This document shows positions 41,944 to 49,538 of a DNA stretch of 64,000 nt, one piece after another (position 1 is the stretch's first letter; each line of letters opens with the position of its first letter). A program made the position numbers and the translations under genes. The stretch is from an uncultured Flavobacteriaceae bacterium (GTDB lineage Bacteria > Bacteroidota > Bacteroidia > Flavobacteriales > Flavobacteriaceae). Location: the NCBI GenBank assembly GCA_947494325.1, contig CANLUS010000003.1:310001-374000 (forward strand), read 5' to 3'. A model generated the notes under the pieces. That model did no database searches and had not been told where the DNA came from. It saw only the letters and a program-made list of their open reading frames with translations.

Positions 41944-43236
41944 ATGAGCTTTAAAAATTCAGAGAAACTATATAAAAAAGGACTACAACATTTAGTTGGA
42001 GCTGTGAACTCGCCGGTGAGAGCATTTGCATCCGTTGGTGGAAACCCGTTGTTTATAAAAAAAGCAAAAGGTACAAGAATTACAGATGTAGATGATAATG
42101 ACTATGTAGATTATGTGCTGTCTTATGGACCGATGATCCTAGGGCATCGTCATAAAAAAGTACAAAGAGCAATAGATAAGGCCTTAAAAAATGGCTATAC
42201 CTTTGGAGCATCAACTAAAAATGAAATCAATCTAGCTAAGCTCGTTTGTGATGCTTTTCCAGGAATGGATAAGGTTCGTTTTGTAAATTCTGGTACTGAA
42301 GCTGTCTTAAGTGGAATTCGTTTAGCAAGAGCTTTTACAGGAAAAGATAAAATTATCAAATTTGCTGGTTGTTACCACGGTCATCAAGACGCGTTATTGG
42401 TCGCGGCAGGTTCTGGCTTAGCCACCTTAAGTATGCCTGGAAGTAAAGGAGTACCTGAAGGAGCCGTAAAAAATACATTGATTGCCACCTATAACGATAT
42501 TGAAAGCGTTAAAGCACACTTTAAAAAACATAAAGACATTGCAGGGGTAATTATTGAGCCTGTAGGTGGTAATATGGGCGTTGTAATTCCTCAAAATAAT
42601 TTTTTAAAAGAGTTAAAAGAACTTACGAAGGCGAATGATGCTTTGTTAATTGCAGATGAAGTGATGACGGGTTTTCGATCGCAATTCGGAGGAGCTCAAG
42701 AATTGTTTAACGTAGAAGCAGATATCACTTGTCTGGGAAAAGTCGTAGGTGGAGGTTTTCCTGTAGGAGCTTACGGAGCTCGTAATGAAATTATGGAAAT
42801 GGTAGCACCATTAGGAGGCATGTATCAGGCCGGAACTTTATCGGGTAATCCAATCGCAATGGCAGCTGGGATCGCTACGCTAAAAGAGTTGAAAAGACAA
42901 GACCCTTATCAGTACTTCGAAGAGATTGGTAGTATTATCGAGGTTATTTTAATGGAAAAAGCAAAAGAATATCATGTTGATTTAACAGTGAATAGATTTG
43001 GTTCTATGTTGAATCCTTTTTTCAAGAAAGGAGTAGTGACTAACTTTGGAGAAGCACAACAATCAGATACCAAGAAATTTGGAGTGTTTTTCTGGGAAAT
43101 GATTCGAAACGGAGTGTTTTTACCACCATCACAATTTGAAGCTTGGTTTTTGTCATCCGCGATAAGCGAAAAAGATTTGGATACAACAGCCAAAGCTATT
43201 GATAAATCGATGAGAGCGGTATCAGAGATGAAATAA
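41944..43236 (+). CDS. hemL: Glutamate-1-semialdehyde 2,1-aminomutase
   Basis: 430 aa, class III aminotransferase fold. Lys266 in CLGKVVGGGFPVGAYGA binds pyridoxal phosphate; other blocks are VRFVNSGTEAVLSGIRLARA and IADEVMTGFRSQFGG. It moves the amino group of glutamate-1-semialdehyde to give 5-aminolevulinate, following HemA. The order hemA-CD-B-L places the gene slightly out of pathway order. PdxH, which makes its cofactor, is encoded 19 kb away. Confidence 0.96.
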   Translation: MSFKNSEKLYKKGLQHLVGAVNSPVRAFASVGGNPLFIKKAKGTRITDVDDNDYVDYVLSYGPMILGHRHKKVQRAIDKALKNGYTFGASTKNEINLAKLVCDAFPGMDKVRFVNSGTEAVLSGIRLARAFTGKDKIIKFAGCYHGHQDALLVAAGSGLATLSMPGSKGVPEGAVKNTLIATYNDIESVKAHFKKHKDIAGVIIEPVGGNMGVVIPQNNFLKELKELTKANDALLIADEVMTGFRSQFGGAQELFNVEADITCLGKVVGGGFPVGAYGARNEIMEMVAPLGGMYQAGTLSGNPIAMAAGIATLKELKRQDPYQYFEEIGSIIEVILMEKAKEYHVDLTVNRFGSMLNPFFKKGVVTNFGEAQQSDTKKFGVFFWEMIRNGVFLPPSQFEAWFLSSAISEKDLDTTAKAIDKSMRAVSEMK

Positions 43237-43345
43237 CTTTTTCTTAATAGAAGTTAAAGAGATTCACCAGTGTTGAAAGTGTTAAGTACAAGAAAAAAAT
43301 GTCACAACGATAAAATTCGTTAGACAATTCAAATTAAAATATAAA

Positions 43346-44371
43346 ATGATCAAAAACGATTTATTTTTAAGAGCCTTAAAAGGAGAAACTGTGGATAGAC
43401 CACCTGTGTGGATGATGCGTCAAGCGGGGCGACATTTACCCGAATTTATGAAGATCCGTGAGAAGTACGATTTCTTCACACGCTGTAGAACTCCAGAGTT
43501 AGCTTCAGAGATCACGGTTCAACCAATTAGACGCTATGGTATGGATGCCGCTATTTTGTTTTCTGATATTTTAGTGATTCCGCAAGCGATGAATATTGAG
43601 GTACAGATGAAACCTAATTTTGGCCCATATTTACCAAATCCAGTGAGAGATCAGAAAGACGTCGATCAAGTTATGATACCCGATGTGAATATTGAACTTG
43701 ATTATGTCATGCAAGCCATTAAAGCGACGAAAGAATTGCTGAATGATGAGATTCCGTTAATTGGTTTTGCAGGTTCACCTTGGACCATTTTGTGTTATGT
43801 AGTACAAGGTCAAGGAAGTAAAAATTTCGATAAAGCGAAGGCATTTTGTTTTACAAATCCTATTGCGGCTCATCAATTATTGCAGAAAATTACCGATACT
43901 ACGATTGCATATTTAAAAGCAAAAGTAAAAGCAGGCGTTGATGTGGTACAGATTTTCGACTCGTGGGGAGGCATGTTATCTCCCGTTGACTATCAAGAAT
44001 TTTCATGGCAATATATCAACCAAATTATCGAGGCATTGAAAGATGATGCTCCAGTGATTGCCTTTGGGAAAGGGTGTTGGTTCGCTCTGAACGAAATGGG
44101 TAAATCAAATGCTTCGGCCTTAGGTGTTGATTGGACGATTACCGCTCTAAACGCTCGTTATTTATCTGGAAGAAATATCACCTTACAAGGTAATTTTGAC
44201 CCTTCTCGATTGTTATCTCCACCAAGTGAAATAAAGAAAATGGTCACGCAAATGATTAACGAATTCGGAAAAGATAAATATATTGTAAATTTAGGCCATG
44301 GTATGTTACCAAATATTCCGGTGGAGAATGCAAAAGCATTTGTGGATGCGGTAAAAGAATATAAGGCTTAA
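43346..44371 (+). CDS. hemE: Uroporphyrinogen decarboxylase
   Basis: 341 aa. The N-terminal signature [17 protein letters not shown] and [19 protein letters not shown], with the catalytic Asp in [13 protein letters not shown]. It removes four acetate carboxyls from uroporphyrinogen III to form coproporphyrinogen III. It lies 109 bases after hemL, where a weak separate promoter could exist although no perfect -7 box was seen. Its stop overlaps the next ATG by one base. Confidence 0.96.
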
Positions 44372-44862
44372 TGAAAGTAACGGGTTTCTTGAAGTTAATT
44401 AATAAAGGTAACGCTTGGTCGTTCATCCTTCTTTTTATGAGACATCCGTTTAATTTGATACCTACATTCTTAGCGACCTATCAATGCGTGGAAATTTCTA
44501 ATGAACACTATGGCACCTTGCATCATAAGAATAATAAAACGAACGCTTTTCGTCATGCCTTATGGAATTACCTAATTGCAAAAAAGTGTTCTAGCTGGAG
44601 ACGAAATAAAAGGAAAGCCATTCGTTTCGCACAAAAAATAACCGATTGGCACGAAGAGTTTTCTCCTAATGCGCCGCTTGAAAAGGAAATGGATCTGCAC
44701 AACAATCATATCGGTCGCAAATTATTTATTCAGGAAAACGAGGAATCTGTTGAGAAGTTCGTACATTTTTTGAAAGAGAAAGTAGAAAACTCGCAACTTA
44801 TTGCTAGTATTGAAGATATTAAAAAGCATAGTAACAGTCTCGTACACATAGAAGAAGTATAG
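44371..44862 (+). CDS. DUF6973-like hypothetical protein in the heme operon
   Basis: 163 aa. The core NAFRHALWNYLIAKK, then TDWHEEFSPNAPLEKEMDLHNNHIGRKLF, gives conserved His, Asn and Asp residues like those of the DUF6973 family, which could form a metal or hydrolase centre. It overlaps the hemE stop by one base and the GNAT start by one base, so it is translated in step with heme genes. There is no signal peptide; the N-terminal FLKLINKGNAWSFILLFMRHPFNL is mildly hydrophobic. Function unknown. Confidence 0.65.
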   Translation: MKVTGFLKLINKGNAWSFILLFMRHPFNLIPTFLATYQCVEISNEHYGTLHHKNNKTNAFRHALWNYLIAKKCSSWRRNKRKAIRFAQKITDWHEEFSPNAPLEKEMDLHNNHIGRKLFIQENEESVEKFVHFLKEKVENSQLIASIEDIKKHSNSLVHIEEV

Positions 44863-45392
44863 TGTTTGTAATCGATGGTAACTATATAATTGATGTAATT
44901 CATAGTGCTGATTCGAAAAGTCTATCCGAACTAATGATTTCAAATCATGAACGATTTTACCGTTATTTTCCGAAAACATTAGAACAGAATTTATCCGAAA
45001 AAGCATCGAAAGCATTCATTAAGCAAAAAGAGATACAGTTTAATTCTAAAGCCGAATTTCTATTTGTACTAAAAGAAGCGTCGAGCGTTATTGGATTGAT
45101 TTATATTAAGGAATTAGACTGGAATAAGAAGCAAGGAGAGTTTGCCTATTGTATAGGTGGCGAATTTAGTGGAAAAGGACTCATTAGCAAAGCAGTAAAA
45201 CTTTTGTCGAGGCATGCTTTTGATATATTAGGACTAGAGGTATTACAAATCATGGTCCATAAAGATAATATACCAAGTGTTAGAGTGGCAAAAAATGCAG
45301 GATTTGAATGGCAGAAAACAATGAACAAATCGTATGCACCGCCAAATGAAGAAGCTTTGGATATGGAATTATATGAACTATATAAAAATTAA
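44862..45392 (+). CDS. GNAT family N-acetyltransferase (RimJ/RimL type) in the heme operon
   Basis: 176 aa, GTG start overlapping the previous stop by one base (TAGTG). GNAT pattern: FLFVLKEASSVIGLIYIKEL, the acetyl-CoA loop GGEFSGKGLISKAVKLL and MVHKDNIPSVRVAKNAGFEW, the C-terminal block of the RimJ/RimL branch. Such enzymes acetylate protein N-termini or antibiotics; the target here is unknown. Three bases separate it from the tautomerase gene. Confidence 0.83.
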   Translation: MFVIDGNYIIDVIHSADSKSLSELMISNHERFYRYFPKTLEQNLSEKASKAFIKQKEIQFNSKAEFLFVLKEASSVIGLIYIKELDWNKKQGEFAYCIGGEFSGKGLISKAVKLLSRHAFDILGLEVLQIMVHKDNIPSVRVAKNAGFEWQKTMNKSYAPPNEEALDMELYELYKN

Positions 45393-45395
45393 ATA

Positions 45396-45758
45396 ATGCC
45401 CCATTTTGTAATAGATTGCTCGCAAACTATTTTTGAAATTCAAAGTCCGATAAATATGTTGTGGGCGGTACATGAAGAAGCTAATAATTCTGACTTATTT
45501 GATGAGGCAGATATAAAAGTTCGGTTAAACCCTTATAGCAAAGACTATCTTGTTGGGGGAAAGCAAGAAAATTTCATTCATGTTTTCGCAGACATTATGG
45601 AAGGTAGAAGTGAAGAACAAAAAGCGAACCTCTCGAGAAACATAGTAAAAAGATTAAAATCAATGTTTAAGGATGTTTCGTTTATTGCTATGAATGTTAA
45701 TGATTTTGAAAAAGCTACTTATTGTAATAAGAACATGATTTTAAACGATGAAGGATAA
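45396..45758 (+). CDS. 5-carboxymethyl-2-hydroxymuconate isomerase-like tautomerase
   Basis: 120 aa. It starts MPHFVIDCSQ, leaving Pro1 as the catalytic base after Met removal, and continues with SDLFDEADIKVRLNPYSKDYLVGG, FIHVFADIMEGRSEEQKANLS and ATYCNKNMIL, the pattern of the CHMI (HpcD) family in the tautomerase superfamily. CHMI acts in 4-hydroxyphenylacetate breakdown, but no other gene of that pathway is present. It overlaps hemF by 11 bases. A role in the heme operon has to be inferred; a different keto-enol substrate is possible. Confidence 0.8.
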   Translation: MPHFVIDCSQTIFEIQSPINMLWAVHEEANNSDLFDEADIKVRLNPYSKDYLVGGKQENFIHVFADIMEGRSEEQKANLSRNIVKRLKSMFKDVSFIAMNVNDFEKATYCNKNMILNDEG

Positions 45759-46650
45759 ATTTTATACTTATATACAGCAATTACAAGATACTATTACCGC
45801 TAAACTAGAAGCGATAGATGGTAAAGCTACTTTTCAGGAAGATATTTGGAAAAGACCTGAAGGTGGAGGTGGAAGAACACGTGTCATTGAAAATGGCAAC
45901 GTATTCGAGAAGGGTGGTGTGAATATATCAGGGGTTCATGGTAAATTACCAAAATCAATGCAAGCTTATTTCAAGGTTGGAGATGTTGATTTTTTTGCGT
46001 GTGGCCTTAGTTTGGTGTTGCATCCTAAAAGTCCAATGGTACCAACAGTACATGCAAATTGGCGATATTTTGAAATGTATAATGAGCAAGGAGACATTAT
46101 CGATTCATGGTTTGGAGGAGGACAAGATTTAACCCCTTATTATTTATTCGAGGCTGACGCGCAACATTTCCATAGCGTATGTAAAACTTCCTGTGATCGT
46201 CATAATGATGAATTTTATAATACTTATAAGAAGCGTTGTGATGAATATTTCTATAACGCACATAGAAATGAAGCAAGAGGCATTGGAGGTTTGTTTTTCG
46301 ATTATTGCAAAAAATCGGAGGAGATGACCATGGAAAATTGGTATGACTTTGTAACCGAAGTGGGCGATAGTTTTTTAGAAGCTTATGTACCAATTGTTGA
46401 GAAAAGAAAGGTATTACCATATACGAAAGACCAAAGAAATTGGCAAGAAATTCGCCGCGGTCGGTATGTAGAGTTCAACTTAGTACACGATAAAGGCACG
46501 CTGTTCGGACTCAAAACAAATGGGCGTATAGAAAGTATTTTAATGAGTCTGCCTCCTCACGTTCAATGGGTCTACGATCACCATCCTGAGAAAGGTAGCG
46601 AGGAAGAAAAATTGCTTGAAGTACTGCAAAACCCTAGGGTGTGGATTTAG
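45748..46650 (+). CDS. hemF: Oxygen-dependent coproporphyrinogen III oxidase
   Basis: 300 aa. Family blocks: GGGRTRVIENGNVFEKGGVN, VHANWRYFEMY, DSWFGGGQDLTPYYLFE, ARGIGGLFFDYC, RRGRYVEFNLVHDKGT and LMSLPPHVQWVYDH. It converts coproporphyrinogen III to protoporphyrinogen IX using oxygen. The window shows no hemN, so this step needs air here, in line with an aerobic organism. It is the last gene of the operon; no clear terminator follows, and the next promoter begins 13 bases after the stop. Confidence 0.96.
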   Translation: MKDKFYTYIQQLQDTITAKLEAIDGKATFQEDIWKRPEGGGGRTRVIENGNVFEKGGVNISGVHGKLPKSMQAYFKVGDVDFFACGLSLVLHPKSPMVPTVHANWRYFEMYNEQGDIIDSWFGGGQDLTPYYLFEADAQHFHSVCKTSCDRHNDEFYNTYKKRCDEYFYNAHRNEARGIGGLFFDYCKKSEEMTMENWYDFVTEVGDSFLEAYVPIVEKRKVLPYTKDQRNWQEIRRGRYVEFNLVHDKGTLFGLKTNGRIESILMSLPPHVQWVYDHHPEKGSEEEKLLEVLQNPRVWI

Positions 46651-46662
46651 TGTGTATCGTAT

Positions 46663-46723
46663 GTTAACGCAAGGTTAATATGAGGTATTTGTAACGATAT
46701 ATTTGATAGTTCTATTATTTTTG
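46663..46723 (+). promoter_or_regulatory. Response-regulator operator and promoter of the two-component genes
   Basis: GTTAA (46663-46667), N6, GTTAA (46674-46678): a direct repeat with 11-bp period, typical of OmpR-type regulators. Then N10, TTG (46689-46691), N24, TATTTTTG (46716-46723), a perfect -7 box 4 bases before the kinase ATG. The same elements with the same distances recur at 48839-48899. Confidence 0.75.
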
Positions 46724-46727
46724 AGGC

Positions 46728-48122
46728 ATGTCGAAAAAAATTAGCTTTCTAATAATTGCTTCCATAATAGGATTAATTGCTTTATCACTAACCCAAGCAT
46801 ATCTTTTTAAAAATACCTATACTCAAAAGAAAGTGGCCTTTTTGAATAAGGCAAACCAGGCAGTTTCGAGAATAGATGATTATACACCATCAATTGATTC
46901 AATAAACGATACTTGGCAACTGCTTTTTGTAAAAGAACTTGATAAATACAATGTAGAAGAAATTTCAGATCAAGAGGCACTAGCTAGATTGAAACATATA
47001 ACAGACTCTCTAAACACCTCTTTTAAAAGAGAATATGATAAAGAACTTAAAACTAAAAATCTAGAATATAATTTAAAGTTTCATAAGGTCGTAAAGCATA
47101 TCATCTTAGTGGATAGCACAAAAATAGATACCATTTTTAAAGAAGACCCTAAAAATTTCTATAGATTATTAGGGTACGATTTTGAACACACTCCAGATTC
47201 AGAAATAAGTAATTCTGTTTGGCAAACAGAACGGGCATTTAGGAAACAAATAGGTGGGGTTTCAAAGAACGTGGCTTATCAATTGTATTTTGAAACCCAA
47301 GACCATATTAATATTGATGGTTGGCGAAGTATTGTTCTAAAGAGTATGGCTACGATGTTATTGTTATCTGTTCTTATCTTTACGTTTGTTATTGGCGTAC
47401 TTTATTATTCGATTCAAAGTTTAATACGGCAGAAAAAAATTGCCGACGTAAAAACCGACTTTATCAATAATATTACCCATGAATTAAAAACGCCACTGGC
47501 GACGCTTTCGCTGGCAACAAAAATGCTCAGAAAAAATGAAGTTAAAAATGATCTAAAAACTATGGATGCAACCGTGAGCACTATTGAAAGGCAAAATATA
47601 AGATTACAGAAATTGATTGATCAAGTATTGAACAATAGTCTAGGATACAACGAAATTGAATTGCAAAAAGAAACAGTTGAGACCAATAATTATATAGAAA
47701 CGATATTAAATGATTTCGAACTTTCCTTGACAACTAATGGTGTTGAAATTGAACGATTTTTGGTAGAGGAAAATCATAAAATTTCAATAGATAAATTCTA
47801 CCTAAGTACCGCTATTTTGAATGTATTAGAGAATGCTGTTAAATATGGCGGTACTAAAATTAAGGTTCATGTTAAAGTGATTAGTTCAAAGGAGTTTAGT
47901 ATGGCTTTTCACGATAATGGGGAAGGCATATCAAAAAAAGACCAACAACTATTGTTTGATAAATTCTATAGAGCCAATAATAAAGAAATTCACAATGTAA
48001 AAGGTCTTGGGTTAGGACTCTATTATAGCAACCAAATTATAAAAGCGCATTCTGGGTCTATTACTGTTGATAGTATAGAGGTAAAAGGAGCAACATTCAC
48101 GATAGTTCTTCCAATAAACTAG
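46728..48122 (+). CDS. Sensor histidine kinase
   Basis: 464 aa. Two membrane helices (residues ~5-27 and ~205-228) enclose a ~175-residue periplasmic sensor domain. The cytoplasmic part has the HisKA H-box with His251 in NITHELKTPLATL, and the HATPase blocks (AILNVLENAVKYGG, FHDNGEGISKKDQ, KGLGLGLYYSNQII). There is no HAMP-like linker of normal length between helix and kinase. It pairs with the response regulator 3 bases downstream. The signal is unknown; the periplasmic domain has no recognised fold. Confidence 0.93.
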   Translation: MSKKISFLIIASIIGLIALSLTQAYLFKNTYTQKKVAFLNKANQAVSRIDDYTPSIDSINDTWQLLFVKELDKYNVEEISDQEALARLKHITDSLNTSFKREYDKELKTKNLEYNLKFHKVVKHIILVDSTKIDTIFKEDPKNFYRLLGYDFEHTPDSEISNSVWQTERAFRKQIGGVSKNVAYQLYFETQDHINIDGWRSIVLKSMATMLLLSVLIFTFVIGVLYYSIQSLIRQKKIADVKTDFINNITHELKTPLATLSLATKMLRKNEVKNDLKTMDATVSTIERQNIRLQKLIDQVLNNSLGYNEIELQKETVETNNYIETILNDFELSLTTNGVEIERFLVEENHKISIDKFYLSTAILNVLENAVKYGGTKIKVHVKVISSKEFSMAFHDNGEGISKKDQQLLFDKFYRANNKEIHNVKGLGLGLYYSNQIIKAHSGSITVDSIEVKGATFTIVLPIN

Positions 48123-48125
48123 CTT

Positions 48126-48821
48126 ATGAACGAAAAATTGAATCATATTTTATTGGCTGAAGATGATCACGATTTTGGTAATATCTTAAAGCAATATTTG
48201 GAGATTTCTGGTTACGTCATCACTTGGGCTAAAGACGGTGAAGAAGCCTTAGACCTTTTTAAAAAAGAACATTATGATATTTGTGTATTGGATGTAATGA
48301 TGCCAAAAATGGATGGGTTTACCTTGGCGGAAAAAATTATTGATCTTCAACCGGAAGTGCCTTTTATTTTTCTAACGGCTCGAAAAATGAAGGAAGATAA
48401 GCTCAAGGGCTTAAAACTCGGAGCGGATGATTATATCGTAAAACCCTTCGAAGCTGATGAGCTAGTATTGCGTTTACAAAATATTTTAAAAAGATCTAGT
48501 GGACAAAAAGCATCCATAATCGATGAGGTGGTTAGTATTGGGAGTTATTCTTTTAATACACGACGTTTAGAATTGCGTTTTGAAGATACAGTTCAGCAGT
48601 TAACAGAAAAGGAAGCCGAATTAATACAATTCTTATACAATCATAGGAACCAACTGTTAAAAAGAGACGAAATCTTAACGGCCGTATGGAAGAATGATGA
48701 CTATTTTTCAGGACGAAGCATGGATGTTTTTATTAGTCGACTTCGAAAGTATTTTAAAGATGATGCCAGTATTTCTATTGAAAGTTCTCGAGGTATTGGC
48801 TTAGAATTTAAGATAGGTTAA
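48126..48821 (+). CDS. OmpR family response regulator
   Basis: 231 aa. Receiver domain with phospho-acceptor Asp56 (VLDVMMPKMDGF), acidic pair AEDDHD and Lys106 (DYIVKPFEA), then an OmpR/PhoB winged-helix domain (LTEKEAELIQFLYNHRNQLLKRDEIL, SMDVFISRLRKYF). Proteins of this class bind direct repeats with 11-bp period as head-to-tail dimers; such repeats (GTTAA-N6-GTTAA) occur before this operon and before the following gene, so it probably activates both. It forms one unit with the kinase. Confidence 0.94.
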   Translation: MNEKLNHILLAEDDHDFGNILKQYLEISGYVITWAKDGEEALDLFKKEHYDICVLDVMMPKMDGFTLAEKIIDLQPEVPFIFLTARKMKEDKLKGLKLGADDYIVKPFEADELVLRLQNILKRSSGQKASIIDEVVSIGSYSFNTRRLELRFEDTVQQLTEKEAELIQFLYNHRNQLLKRDEILTAVWKNDDYFSGRSMDVFISRLRKYFKDDASISIESSRGIGLEFKIG

Positions 48822-48838
48822 TGACTTTTTCTATATTG

Positions 48839-48899
48839 GTTAATCCAAGGTTAACGATGCTATATTGTTTTTTTTGAATCCCATTTGAATCTAAGTTTG
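48839..48899 (+). promoter_or_regulatory. Second response-regulator operator and promoter
   Basis: GTTAA (48839-48843), N6, GTTAA (48850-48854), N10, TTG (48865-48867), N24, TAAGTTTG (48892-48899, perfect -7 box). Every interval equals that at 46663-46723. One more GTTAA at 48817, exactly two periods upstream, covers the stop codon of the regulator gene. Confidence 0.75.
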
Positions 48900-48927: not shown

Positions 48928-49485
48928 ATGAAACCACTAAATTTTATCCTCTTAGCAGTTGCAATGTATACCATGAACGCTTGTGCACAAGACTTTCCAG
49001 CAACTCCCGAAACACCAAAAACACCAAATGTTGATGACATGCATACCGAAGTGACATCTGCTGTCAGTAATTCTACGAGTGTATCGAATTCTGGAAATAT
49101 ATATAAGTTCACTTCAAAATTTCAATCCTCTAAACGTAAAGGTGTATTAGAAATGTTAGAAAATGAATTGAATGATATGCAAGTGCGTAAAAAAGGAAAC
49201 CAATATACATGGACTAAAGTAAAGAATGGGGAAACCATTTTCGAATGTGACTTATCTAATACAAAACTGAAAATGTTATTGCATAAGAATAAAACTTCTT
49301 ATGGTTTTGCGAGCAGAATTAAATCTTTAGGCAATGAATTGAGAACCTATATTTCTGCCCACAAGAGTTTCAAATATACAGCTTCTTCAAATTCTATTGG
49401 CGATGCTCAGGTAAGAGTGGAGAAGGCCAAAGAAGAGTTGAGACGTTCTCTTAAGAATTTAGAAAATGTTAAGAGAAAGCAATAA
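48928..49485 (+). CDS. Small exported protein, likely target of the two-component system
   Basis: 185 aa. The signal peptide MKPLNFILLAVAMYTMNACAQ may end in a lipoprotein Cys (NAC) or a normal Ala-x-Ala cut. A Pro/Thr-rich linker (PATPETPKTPN) precedes a compact domain with Lys-rich helices, ending in a predicted coiled coil (VEKAKEELRRSLKNLENV). The family is not recognised. It has its own promoter with the same operator as the kinase-regulator operon, and a good terminator behind it, so it is probably the main output of that system, perhaps an envelope stress protein. Confidence 0.7.
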   Translation: MKPLNFILLAVAMYTMNACAQDFPATPETPKTPNVDDMHTEVTSAVSNSTSVSNSGNIYKFTSKFQSSKRKGVLEMLENELNDMQVRKKGNQYTWTKVKNGETIFECDLSNTKLKMLLHKNKTSYGFASRIKSLGNELRTYISAHKSFKYTASSNSIGDAQVRVEKAKEELRRSLKNLENVKRKQ

Positions 49486-49510: not shown

Positions 49511-49538
49511 AAAGCCGTAGGTAACTGCGGCCTTTTTT
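49511..49538 (+). terminator. Terminator of the secreted-protein gene
   Basis: Stem GCCGTAG / CTGCGGC (one G-T pair) with GTAA loop, then C and T6. It lies ~28 bases past the stop. The 232 bases from here to the convergent fdhF end are the longest gap in the window and show no gene, RNA or repeat that I can support. Confidence 0.75.

What the first reader, a model, noticed from the sequence alone, without database searches (positions are those of the whole stretch)
46663..48899. Two promoters with identical operator geometry: an autoregulated two-component regulon with a secreted output
Seen: GTTAA-N6-GTTAA-N10-TTG-N24-TAnnTTTG stands before the kinase gene (46663-46723) and before the small exported protein (48839-48899). 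All intervals agree to the base: repeat start to -7 box is 53 in both. Established: OmpR/PhoB-type regulators bind direct repeats with 11-bp period. Inference: the regulator encoded here activates its own operon and the exported protein, and GTTAA is its half-site. The secreted protein family is unrecognised, so the whole system may be undescribed.
Basis: partly seen in the sequence, partly recalled or inferred. Interest (0 to 1): 0.78.

Follow-up and report, generated by a model that had tools for sequence, protein, structure and literature searches.

The report
Self-regulating kinase operon with exported partner
A bacterial sensor-and-switch gene pair appears to turn on both itself and a small exported protein through a short repeated DNA word whose spacing to the promoter has been kept to within a base or so across many related bacteria, while two sister systems use the same word with other spacings.

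Summary
In detail: GTTAA-N6-GTTAA with TAnnTTTG at +53 stands before the kinase gene and before the exported-protein gene. The bare repeat is common in this genome (35 places; reversed control 40), so conservation must carry the argument, and it does. In 80 loci fetched by regulator similarity, 77 have the exact repeat before the kinase gene or just after the regulator gene: 137 hits, against 0 or 1 for any other gap from N3 to N9. 76 sites, in 68 loci, have TAnnTTTG at 52-54.

A site model finds only these two strong sites in the own genome: a nearly closed circuit. The exported protein matches no Pfam or NCBIfam family; relatives follow the regulator in 31 of 80 loci.

Binding, activation and the exported protein's job remain inferred.

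The parts
46663..46678 (+). operator 1, GTTAACGCAAGGTTAA (direct repeat, 11-bp period) before the kinase gene
   Evidence: exact; conserved in relatives
46716..46723 (+). -7 box TATTTTTG (TAnnTTTG) of the kinase promoter, 53 from operator start
   Evidence: offset 52-54 in 76 sites of relatives
46728..48122 (+). sensor histidine kinase (464 aa; HisKA + HATPase_c; N-terminal sensor region)
   Evidence: Pfam; model of residues 1-225 with mean pLDDT 88.6, no PDB match at E <= 0.001
48126..48821 (+). OmpR/PhoB-type response regulator (231 aa), RprY-like
   Evidence: Pfam Response_reg + Trans_reg_C; best NCBIfam match RprY, 248.9 bits, below its cut-off of 370
48839..48854 (+). operator 2, GTTAATCCAAGGTTAA, before the exported-protein gene
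   Evidence: exact; an exact repeat lies after the regulator gene in 10 of 80 loci
48892..48899 (+). -7 box TAAGTTTG of the exported-protein promoter, 53 from operator start
48928..49485 (+). small exported protein (185 aa): signal peptide with a likely cut before invariant Q21, T/P/S-rich linker, alpha/beta domain, C-terminal coiled coil
   Evidence: alignment; model mb9ffdad96e70, pLDDT 94-98 in the ten-residue blocks from 51 to 140; no Pfam or NCBIfam family at E up to 0.1
49514..49538 (+). likely intrinsic terminator (GCCGTA-GGTAAC-TGCGGC then T run) after the exported-protein gene
   Evidence: read by eye from the sequence; not tested

Best explanation
The RprY-like regulator encoded at 48126-48821, once phosphorylated by the kinase beside it, binds as a head-to-tail pair to GTTAA-N6-GTTAA and activates two promoters: that of its own kinase-regulator operon and that of the small exported protein downstream. 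The operator sits at a fixed place, its end about 37 bp before a TAnnTTTG box, in promoters that lack a conserved -33 TTG; this is the layout of an activator rather than of a repressor that covers the promoter. The regulon is very small: own operon plus exported protein. In relatives where the gap between regulator and exported-protein genes is short, one promoter before the kinase gene probably serves all three. Inferred only, and less sure (about 0.35): the exported protein acts back on the kinase from outside the inner membrane as a feedback partner, as SaeP does with SaeQ; the main alternative is that it is the effector itself. Shown: the sites, their conservation and fixed geometry, gene linkage, domain content. 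Inferred: binding, phosphorylation dependence, activation, function of the exported protein.
For: 77 of 80 loci picked by regulator similarity alone carry the exact repeat before the kinase gene (76) or after the regulator gene (10): 137 hits in 56.0 kb of promoter windows against 11 in 770 kb elsewhere in the same loci, + strand. In the same windows other gaps of the same half-site (N3, N4, N5, N7, N8, N9) give 1, 0, 0, 0, 0, 0 hits, the reversed pattern 1, and five shuffled half-sites 0, 0, 1, 4, 0. 76 sites have TAnnTTTG at 52-54 from the repeat start, in 68 of 80 loci; of nine repeat-bearing loci without it, eight carry TAnnTTTA at 53 or 54 from one of their repeats (L194 is the exception). 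17 of 17 loci of the first set have a site, and 23 of its 24 proximal sites have TAnnTTTG at 52-54. Site model R1: in the own genome two strong hits (E 6e-10, 2.6e-7), next E 0.026; the best hit lies at this operon in 15 of 16 genomes. Exported-protein homologues lie behind the same kinase-regulator pair. The same operator word is proven for an OmpR-type regulator, SaeR, that activates its own operon with the lipoprotein gene saeP (PMC5083920, passages read).
Against: No binding or expression data. Three of 80 loci lack the repeat in the windows searched (L129, L137, L197). A wider look finds it with a box at 53 in L129 (45 bases inside an over-long kinase ORF) and in L137 (1.28 kb upstream of the kinase ORF), and nowhere in L197, where no kinase ORF was found. 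The background is mostly coding DNA, so the ratio of densities partly reflects base composition; the gap controls do not have that weakness. The two paralogous RprY-like systems also have GTTAA repeats before their own kinase genes, so another regulator could use these sites. Kinase-regulator pairs with the repeat but without a recognised exported-protein homologue are common (a clade of 36 loci, mostly Flavobacterium), and in the own genus only 4 of 17 genomes, own included, have the regulator at E <= 1e-60. R1 was trained on 21 sites of the same operons, and 150 first-look candidates per genome were scored; divergent targets may be missed. It did not find the triple-repeat kinase sites in any of four Flavobacterium genomes (G548-G551), so its regulon estimate holds for the window type only.
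Confidence: 0.78

Rival explanations
1. The sites are bound mainly by one of the two paralogous RprY-like regulators (type A, own genome C4:212974; type B, C1:234482), so that the promoters report cross-regulation rather than autoregulation.
For: Both paralogous systems carry GTTAA repeats before their own kinase genes, type B even with the same distance of 52-54 to the -7 box. The recognition-helix region is nearly the same in all three by eye (sequences). Type A shares the 11-bp period in 13 of 18.
Against: Each system has its own arrangement: 11-bp period with box at 52-54 (window type); 10-bp triple with box at 52-54 (type B, 13 of 15); pair with box at 42-44 (type A, 17 of 18). The N6 arrangement follows the window-type regulator across 77 of 80 loci, whose promoter windows hold no N5 pair.
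Confidence: 0.13
2. The repeat is a repressor site: the regulator shuts its own operon and the exported protein.
For: Autorepression is common among regulators (general knowledge); direction cannot be read from sequence.
Against: The identical SaeR word activates (PMC5083920).
Confidence: 0.08
3. The exported protein is the working end of the system (an envelope-protecting or binding protein), not a feedback partner of the kinase.
For: In relatives other exported proteins stand in its place or beside it: a 958-aa protein with a T9SS sorting tail and a sub-threshold SBBP hit (L184), a beta-lactamase-type serine hydrolase (L136), a carboxylesterase with sorting tail (L161). These look like alternative outputs. 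The own genome shows no other strong target.
Against: A small exported protein with its own promoter beside the kinase is also how a known feedback partner, SaeP, is arranged; no enzyme family or confident fold match was found.
Confidence: 0.5
4. Chance likeness of two promoters in one window.
For: The bare repeat is frequent in this A+T-rich genome, and 10 of 100 shuffles give two in the window.
Against: Conservation, gap specificity and fixed spacing in relatives.
Confidence: 0.005

Closest known systems
[quoted passage not shown]
   Same: Operator word is letter for letter the same, GTTAA-N6-GTTAA; autoinduced operon; small exported partner encoded in the operon (SaeP, a lipoprotein). From passages of PMC5083920.
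   Different: Other phylum; SaeR is only a general relative (DNA-binding part, E 2.3e-5, 26th of 60 PDB chain sequences); no further gene such as saeQ between the parts (ORF list); SaeS is described with a nine-residue outer linker, whereas here there is a large sensor region; SaeRS controls over 20 virulence factors, here two promoters; no likeness of the exported protein to SaeP was tested.
RprX-RprY of Bacteroides and Porphyromonas
   Same: Best curated match of the regulator is RprY; kinase-regulator gene pair in Bacteroidetes (PMC3646045, passages).
   Different: 248.9 bits against a cut-off of 370; no genome of a 118-genome phylum sample passed that cut-off. In the RprY paper PMC3646045 the terms 'consensus', 'binding site', 'motif' and 'direct repeat' occur 0 times, so no operator could be compared.
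CpxRA-CpxP of Escherichia coli
   Same: Repeat of a five-base half-site, GTAAA-N5-6-GTAAA (PMC9600279, passages). That CpxP is an exported, Cpx-controlled inhibitor of CpxA is recalled.
   Different: Half-site differs. That CpxR has a large regulon and that CpxP has another, all-helical fold is recalled; no direct comparison was made.
PhoB/OmpR-type regulators in general
   Same: Head-to-tail binding to direct repeats with an 11-bp period (recalled; domain content tested).
   Different: The operator ends 37 bp before the -7 box, further up than the pho box of E. coli (recalled).

Membership tests
OmpR/PhoB-type two-component system | receiver domain plus winged-helix Trans_reg_C in the regulator | tested here: met
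   PF00072 3.5e-32 and PF00486 9.6e-16
OmpR/PhoB-type two-component system | HisKA and HATPase_c in the kinase next to it | tested here: met
   PF00512 8.8e-12, PF02518 2.6e-22
OmpR/PhoB-type two-component system | direct-repeat operator with 10-11-bp period | tested here: met
   11 bp in the window and in 77 of 80 loci, as a sequence; binding not tested
RprY (NCBIfam NF051850) | score over the curated cut-off of 370 bits | tested here: not met
   248.9 bits
Sae system | regulator site GTTAA-N6-GTTAA | tested here: met
   as a conserved sequence; definition from PMC5083920
Sae system | regulator is an orthologue of SaeR | tested here: inconclusive
   no tree was made; SaeR chains rank below WalR, VicR, CovR, PhoB, OmpR and others for the DNA-binding part, which speaks against it
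Sae system | saeQ-like membrane protein gene in the operon | tested here: not met
   the ORF list shows only kinase, regulator and exported protein on the + strand between 46728 and 49485
Feedback partner of a kinase (SaeP/CpxP-like role) | exported protein binds the kinase and lowers signalling | not testable with these tools
   needs experiment
Known exported-protein family | match to a Pfam or NCBIfam family | tested here: not met
   0 families for the window protein at E up to 0.1; among the 25 aligned members only scattered hits in a few members each, best PF13644 DKNYY (2 members, 6.3e-5) and coiled-coil families
T9SS-secreted protein | Por_Secre_tail sorting domain | tested here: not met
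   not among the Pfam matches of the window protein at E up to 1; present in the other downstream proteins of L184 and L161

The most novel reading that the evidence does not exclude
In Flavobacteriaceae three sister regulators of the RprY-like group share one half-site, GTTAA, and are kept apart mainly by arrangement: an 11-bp pair or triple with the -7 box at 52-54, a 10-bp triple with the box at 52-54, and a pair, often with a more distant third copy, with the box at 42-44. Repeat period and distance to the promoter would thus serve as an insulation code between paralogous signalling systems.
Probability: 0.4. Interest if true: 0.72.

Novelty: new variant of a known kind. Interest (0 to 1): 0.55.

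Why it matters
Few operator sites of response regulators in Flavobacteriaceae turned up in the literature searches made here. This one can be read from sequence with a fixed geometry in dozens of genomes, tied to its regulator and to a family of exported protein without a Pfam or NCBIfam entry. The comparison with two sister systems that carry the same half-site in other arrangements makes a general question directly testable: how do duplicated regulators with nearly equal recognition helices avoid each other's promoters? The same word in SaeR of a distant phylum gives a ready comparison.

Tried and rejected
Bare repeat as evidence: rejected, because the genome has 35 copies and the reversed control 40. 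Further targets in the own genome: C5:346272 lies inside a long ORF without TAnnTTTG in the 75 bases after it, C7:33966 likewise has none; C1:524491 (E 0.026) recurs in one sister genome (G263), but the hit in G262 is an unrelated place, and it lacks the layout. A link to haem synthesis through the neighbouring hem genes: rejected, they are near in only 6 of 80 loci. A fold for the exported protein: Foldseek against PDB gave nothing at E <= 0.001 (best 0.01, Flpp3, TM 0.28/0.38); kinase sensor region likewise. Phage copies of the exported protein: no match in 50,697 records. RprY proper as a comparison for its operator: no genome of a 118-genome phylum sample passed the threshold set, so not done. 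Porphyromonas HaeR as a comparison: in PMC3764172 'GTTAA', 'consensus' and 'direct repeat' occur 0 times (passages). Literature: ten searches, of which I saw listings and starts of abstracts; none of the listed titles or abstracts describes this operator in Bacteroidota, but several searches matched more papers than were listed, and most subscription papers are not held. 'Bacteroidetes', 'OmpR', 'direct repeat', 'GTTAA' (three of four) gave 8 papers, among them the Sae review; 'SaeR', 'GTTAA', 'Bacteroidetes' together gave none.

Rows dropped before counts: for model R1, 21 of the 24 sites were used; L048_HK, L051_HK and L067_HK (box at 52 or 54) were left out. The three-fold repeat and distal sites were not in R1. 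In one search, 2 of 17 type-B regions gave no kinase ORF and are not in the 15; L307 and L319, fetched as type B, are in the 15 but do not show the type-B layout (L319 has the window layout). One type-B hit (G259:C28) was not fetched because the contig begins close by. Types A and B were read only in the own genome and in genomes that also have the window type. The group labels are rough: the serine-hydrolase label caught no locus, L184 was labelled 'none' although it carries the 958-aa protein, and only the first three ORFs of 100 aa or more within 1.8 kb were scanned.
Full report
WHAT IS THERE. The window lies in a 3.64-Mb genome (G000:C3:310001-374000) whose relatives are Flavobacteriaceae. 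At 46728-48122 stands a sensor histidine kinase, at 48126-48821 an OmpR/PhoB-type response regulator, at 48928-49485 a small exported protein. The regulator's best curated match is RprY, 248.9 bits against a cut-off of 370, so it is RprY-like but not a member by that test.

IS IT MORE THAN CHANCE. By itself the repeat is not: 35 places in the genome against 40 for the reversed pattern, two in the window in 10 of 100 shuffles. The fuller word GTTAANNCAAGGTTAA is exact only at the two places. So I tested conservation. A search with the exported protein alone in 249 family genomes gave 15 matches, own included. In 13 of the 14 others a relative of the kinase, of the regulator or of both lies next door (the exception is L045). 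In the own genus 4 of 17 genomes, own included, have the regulator at E <= 1e-60. I read the upstream regions of those 13 loci, of three same-genus loci found with the regulator, and of the window. All 17 carry at least one exact GTTAA-N6-GTTAA before the kinase gene or after the regulator gene. Of 24 proximal sites 23 have TAnnTTTG at 52, 53 or 54 from the repeat start; L052 has TActTTTA.

A LARGER, NAMED SET. It overlaps with the first set (for example L119 with L065, L124 with L049). In 77 of 80 the exact repeat is present in the windows searched, 76 before the kinase gene and 10 after the regulator gene; it is missing there in L129, L137 and L197. A wider look finds it in L129 and L137, each with a box at 53, at places outside those windows, and not in L197, where no kinase ORF was found. 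The density is 137 hits in 56.0 kb of promoter windows against 11 in 770 kb of the rest of the same loci, + strand. The gap is specific: in the same windows N6 gives 137 hits, N3 one, and N4, N5, N7, N8, N9 none; the reversed pattern gives 1 and five shuffled half-sites 0 to 4. TAnnTTTG follows at 52-54 in 76 sites, 45 pairs (42 at 53) and 31 triples (30 at 52), in 68 of 80 loci. Of the twelve loci without such a box three are those just named; of the other nine, eight show TAnnTTTA at 53 or 54 from one of their repeats, and L194 does not. Position by position the half-site is GTTAA followed mostly by Y-G; the base before it is mostly G for the second copy (43rd column for pairs) and mixed for the first.

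VARIANTS OF THE LAYOUT. 42 of 80 loci, mostly Flavobacterium, have a third GTTAA 11 bp further on (31 proximal triples). Seven pairs of successive sites are 95-97 bp apart and two 116-117, so several promoters carry a second operator about nine helical turns upstream. The ten loci with an operator after the regulator gene have the next ORF 100-132 bp away, as in the window (109); L129, with 117, has none there. Where the gap is short the exported-protein gene is presumably read through from the kinase promoter.

SIZE OF THE REGULON. A sequence model of 21 sites (R1) was run on 16 genomes. In the own genome it gives two strong hits, the two sites in question, and then nothing better than E 0.026. 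The best hit lies at the kinase or exported-protein gene in 15 of 16 genomes; in G063 a hit elsewhere (C33:341038, E 6.1e-5) is about equal to the operon hit (6.7e-5), and no ORF of 60 aa or more starts behind it within about a kilobase. A further hit in G063 (C42:725949, E 1.2e-4) lies before the kinase gene of a second system with the window layout. In a phylum sample 7 of 296 genomes, own included, had a hit at E <= 0.005 under stricter filters. R1 did not find the triple-repeat kinase sites of four Flavobacterium genomes. For those I counted the exact triple: once in four of seven genomes and twice in three (G548, G549, G562), with one copy at the kinase gene. In G549 the second lies before a second kinase-regulator pair that is followed by an ORF like the exported-protein homologue of L190 by eye. 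The regulon thus looks close to closed, with the caution that divergent sites can be missed.

THE EXPORTED PROTEIN. It has a signal peptide whose likely cut lies before an invariant Gln (Q21), a T/P/S-rich linker, a domain predicted with pLDDT 94-98 from residue 51 to 140 (strands 49-54, 58-64, helix 67-80, strands 85-89, 92-99, 102-109, 113-119, helix 125-143) and a helix at 156-184. The window protein has Cys at 19, so a lipoprotein is possible, but the invariant Gln after a small-x-small motif favours an ordinary signal peptide; this is inference. The window protein matches no Pfam or NCBIfam family at E up to 0.1, and no PDB fold at E <= 0.001. A profile finds it within 1.8 kb behind the regulator in 31 of 80 loci; 24 of those are in the profile itself, so 7 are new finds. 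Five of nine Aquimarina loci have two copies. Some members are 414-450 aa with an extra C-terminal part. On the regulator tree the label needs 5 changes against 25.6 for shuffled labels; the bootstrap had not settled. It thus looks inherited, with some gains or losses. Other exported proteins occupy the place elsewhere: a 958-aa protein with a T9SS tail (eight loci have a look-alike by eye), beta-lactamase-type hydrolases, a carboxylesterase with a T9SS tail.

THE SISTER SYSTEMS. 18 genomes have one to four RprY-like regulators each at E <= 1e-58, the window type included; 15 of 18 have three. I read the sequence before the kinase genes of the two other types, own genome included (box searched there as TA..TTT[GA]). 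Type A (18 read): GTTAA pairs of 11-bp period in 13 and of 10-bp in 5, a further GTTAA at 33-34 from the first in 11, and a box at 42-44 in 17. Type B (15 read): 10-bp triples in 13, all of them with a box at 52-54; the other two, L307 and L319, do not show this layout. So GTTAA repeats mark the whole RprY-like group in the genomes read, and the arrangement differs by system.

HOW IT PROBABLY WORKS. Phosphorylated regulator binds head to tail and recruits RNA polymerase to promoters that have a -7 box but no conserved -33 box; this raises kinase, regulator and exported protein together. The closest proven case is SaeR: 'GTTAAN6GTTAA', an autoinduced P1 promoter, and SaeP, a lipoprotein made from it that with SaeQ induces the phosphatase activity of SaeS (PMC5083920; passages read). 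SaeR is no special relative: its DNA-binding domain ranks 26th of 60 PDB sequences for our domain, so the shared word is best taken as convergence or as an old preference of the fold. A feedback role for the exported protein is an analogy, not a result; an effector role is at least as likely.

VERDICT. Observation confirmed; autoregulation and joint control well supported by conservation; -33 element and sole ownership of GTTAA not supported; binding, direction and output function untested. A new variant of a known kind.

Noticed in passing
L120, L122, L124, L128 (leader before the kinase gene); L253, L279; many family genomes: The operator-promoter of Winogradskyella/Psychroserpens-type loci first meets a 28-31-residue ORF (MRTLNN...WNxKRR(F/Y)R), with a hairpin that looks like a terminator by eye between it and the kinase gene. 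Relatives of this peptide occur in 102 of 299 family genomes at E <= 0.05. Of 30 loci looked at, 28 are elsewhere, often as tandem copies and with a second peptide of about 44 residues ending in KRYAH or similar, behind a different, strongly conserved promoter. No match in the own genome.
   Followed up: partly
L047, L051, L054, L056, L057, L126, L151, L154, L167, L170, L172, L191; L250: A second GTTAA repeat lies 95-98 bp upstream of the promoter-proximal one in these kinase promoters (L191 and L057 are the same locus), close to nine helical turns; possible cooperative binding or looping.
   Followed up: partly
L146, L171: The regulator of a contig labelled Limnohabitans (Comamonadaceae) sits beside that of Flavobacterium davisii, and one labelled Saprospiraceae sits among Flavobacteriaceae: mis-binned contigs or transfer.
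   Followed up: no
L136, L137, L148, L149, L152; L252: A serine-hydrolase gene lies between regulator and exported-protein genes in these loci (by eye; Pfam Beta-lactamase for L136), and a similar-looking gene lies before the kinase gene in G148.
   Followed up: partly
G355, G463 (L111, L114, L117): In another family of the same order, kinase promoters of this type carry two or three GTTAA copies at 11-bp period.
   Followed up: no
window 41944-46650: hemL-, hemE- and hemF-like genes with small genes between lie just upstream of the kinase gene (named from recall, ORFs); this neighbourhood is found in only 6 of 80 loci.
   Followed up: yes
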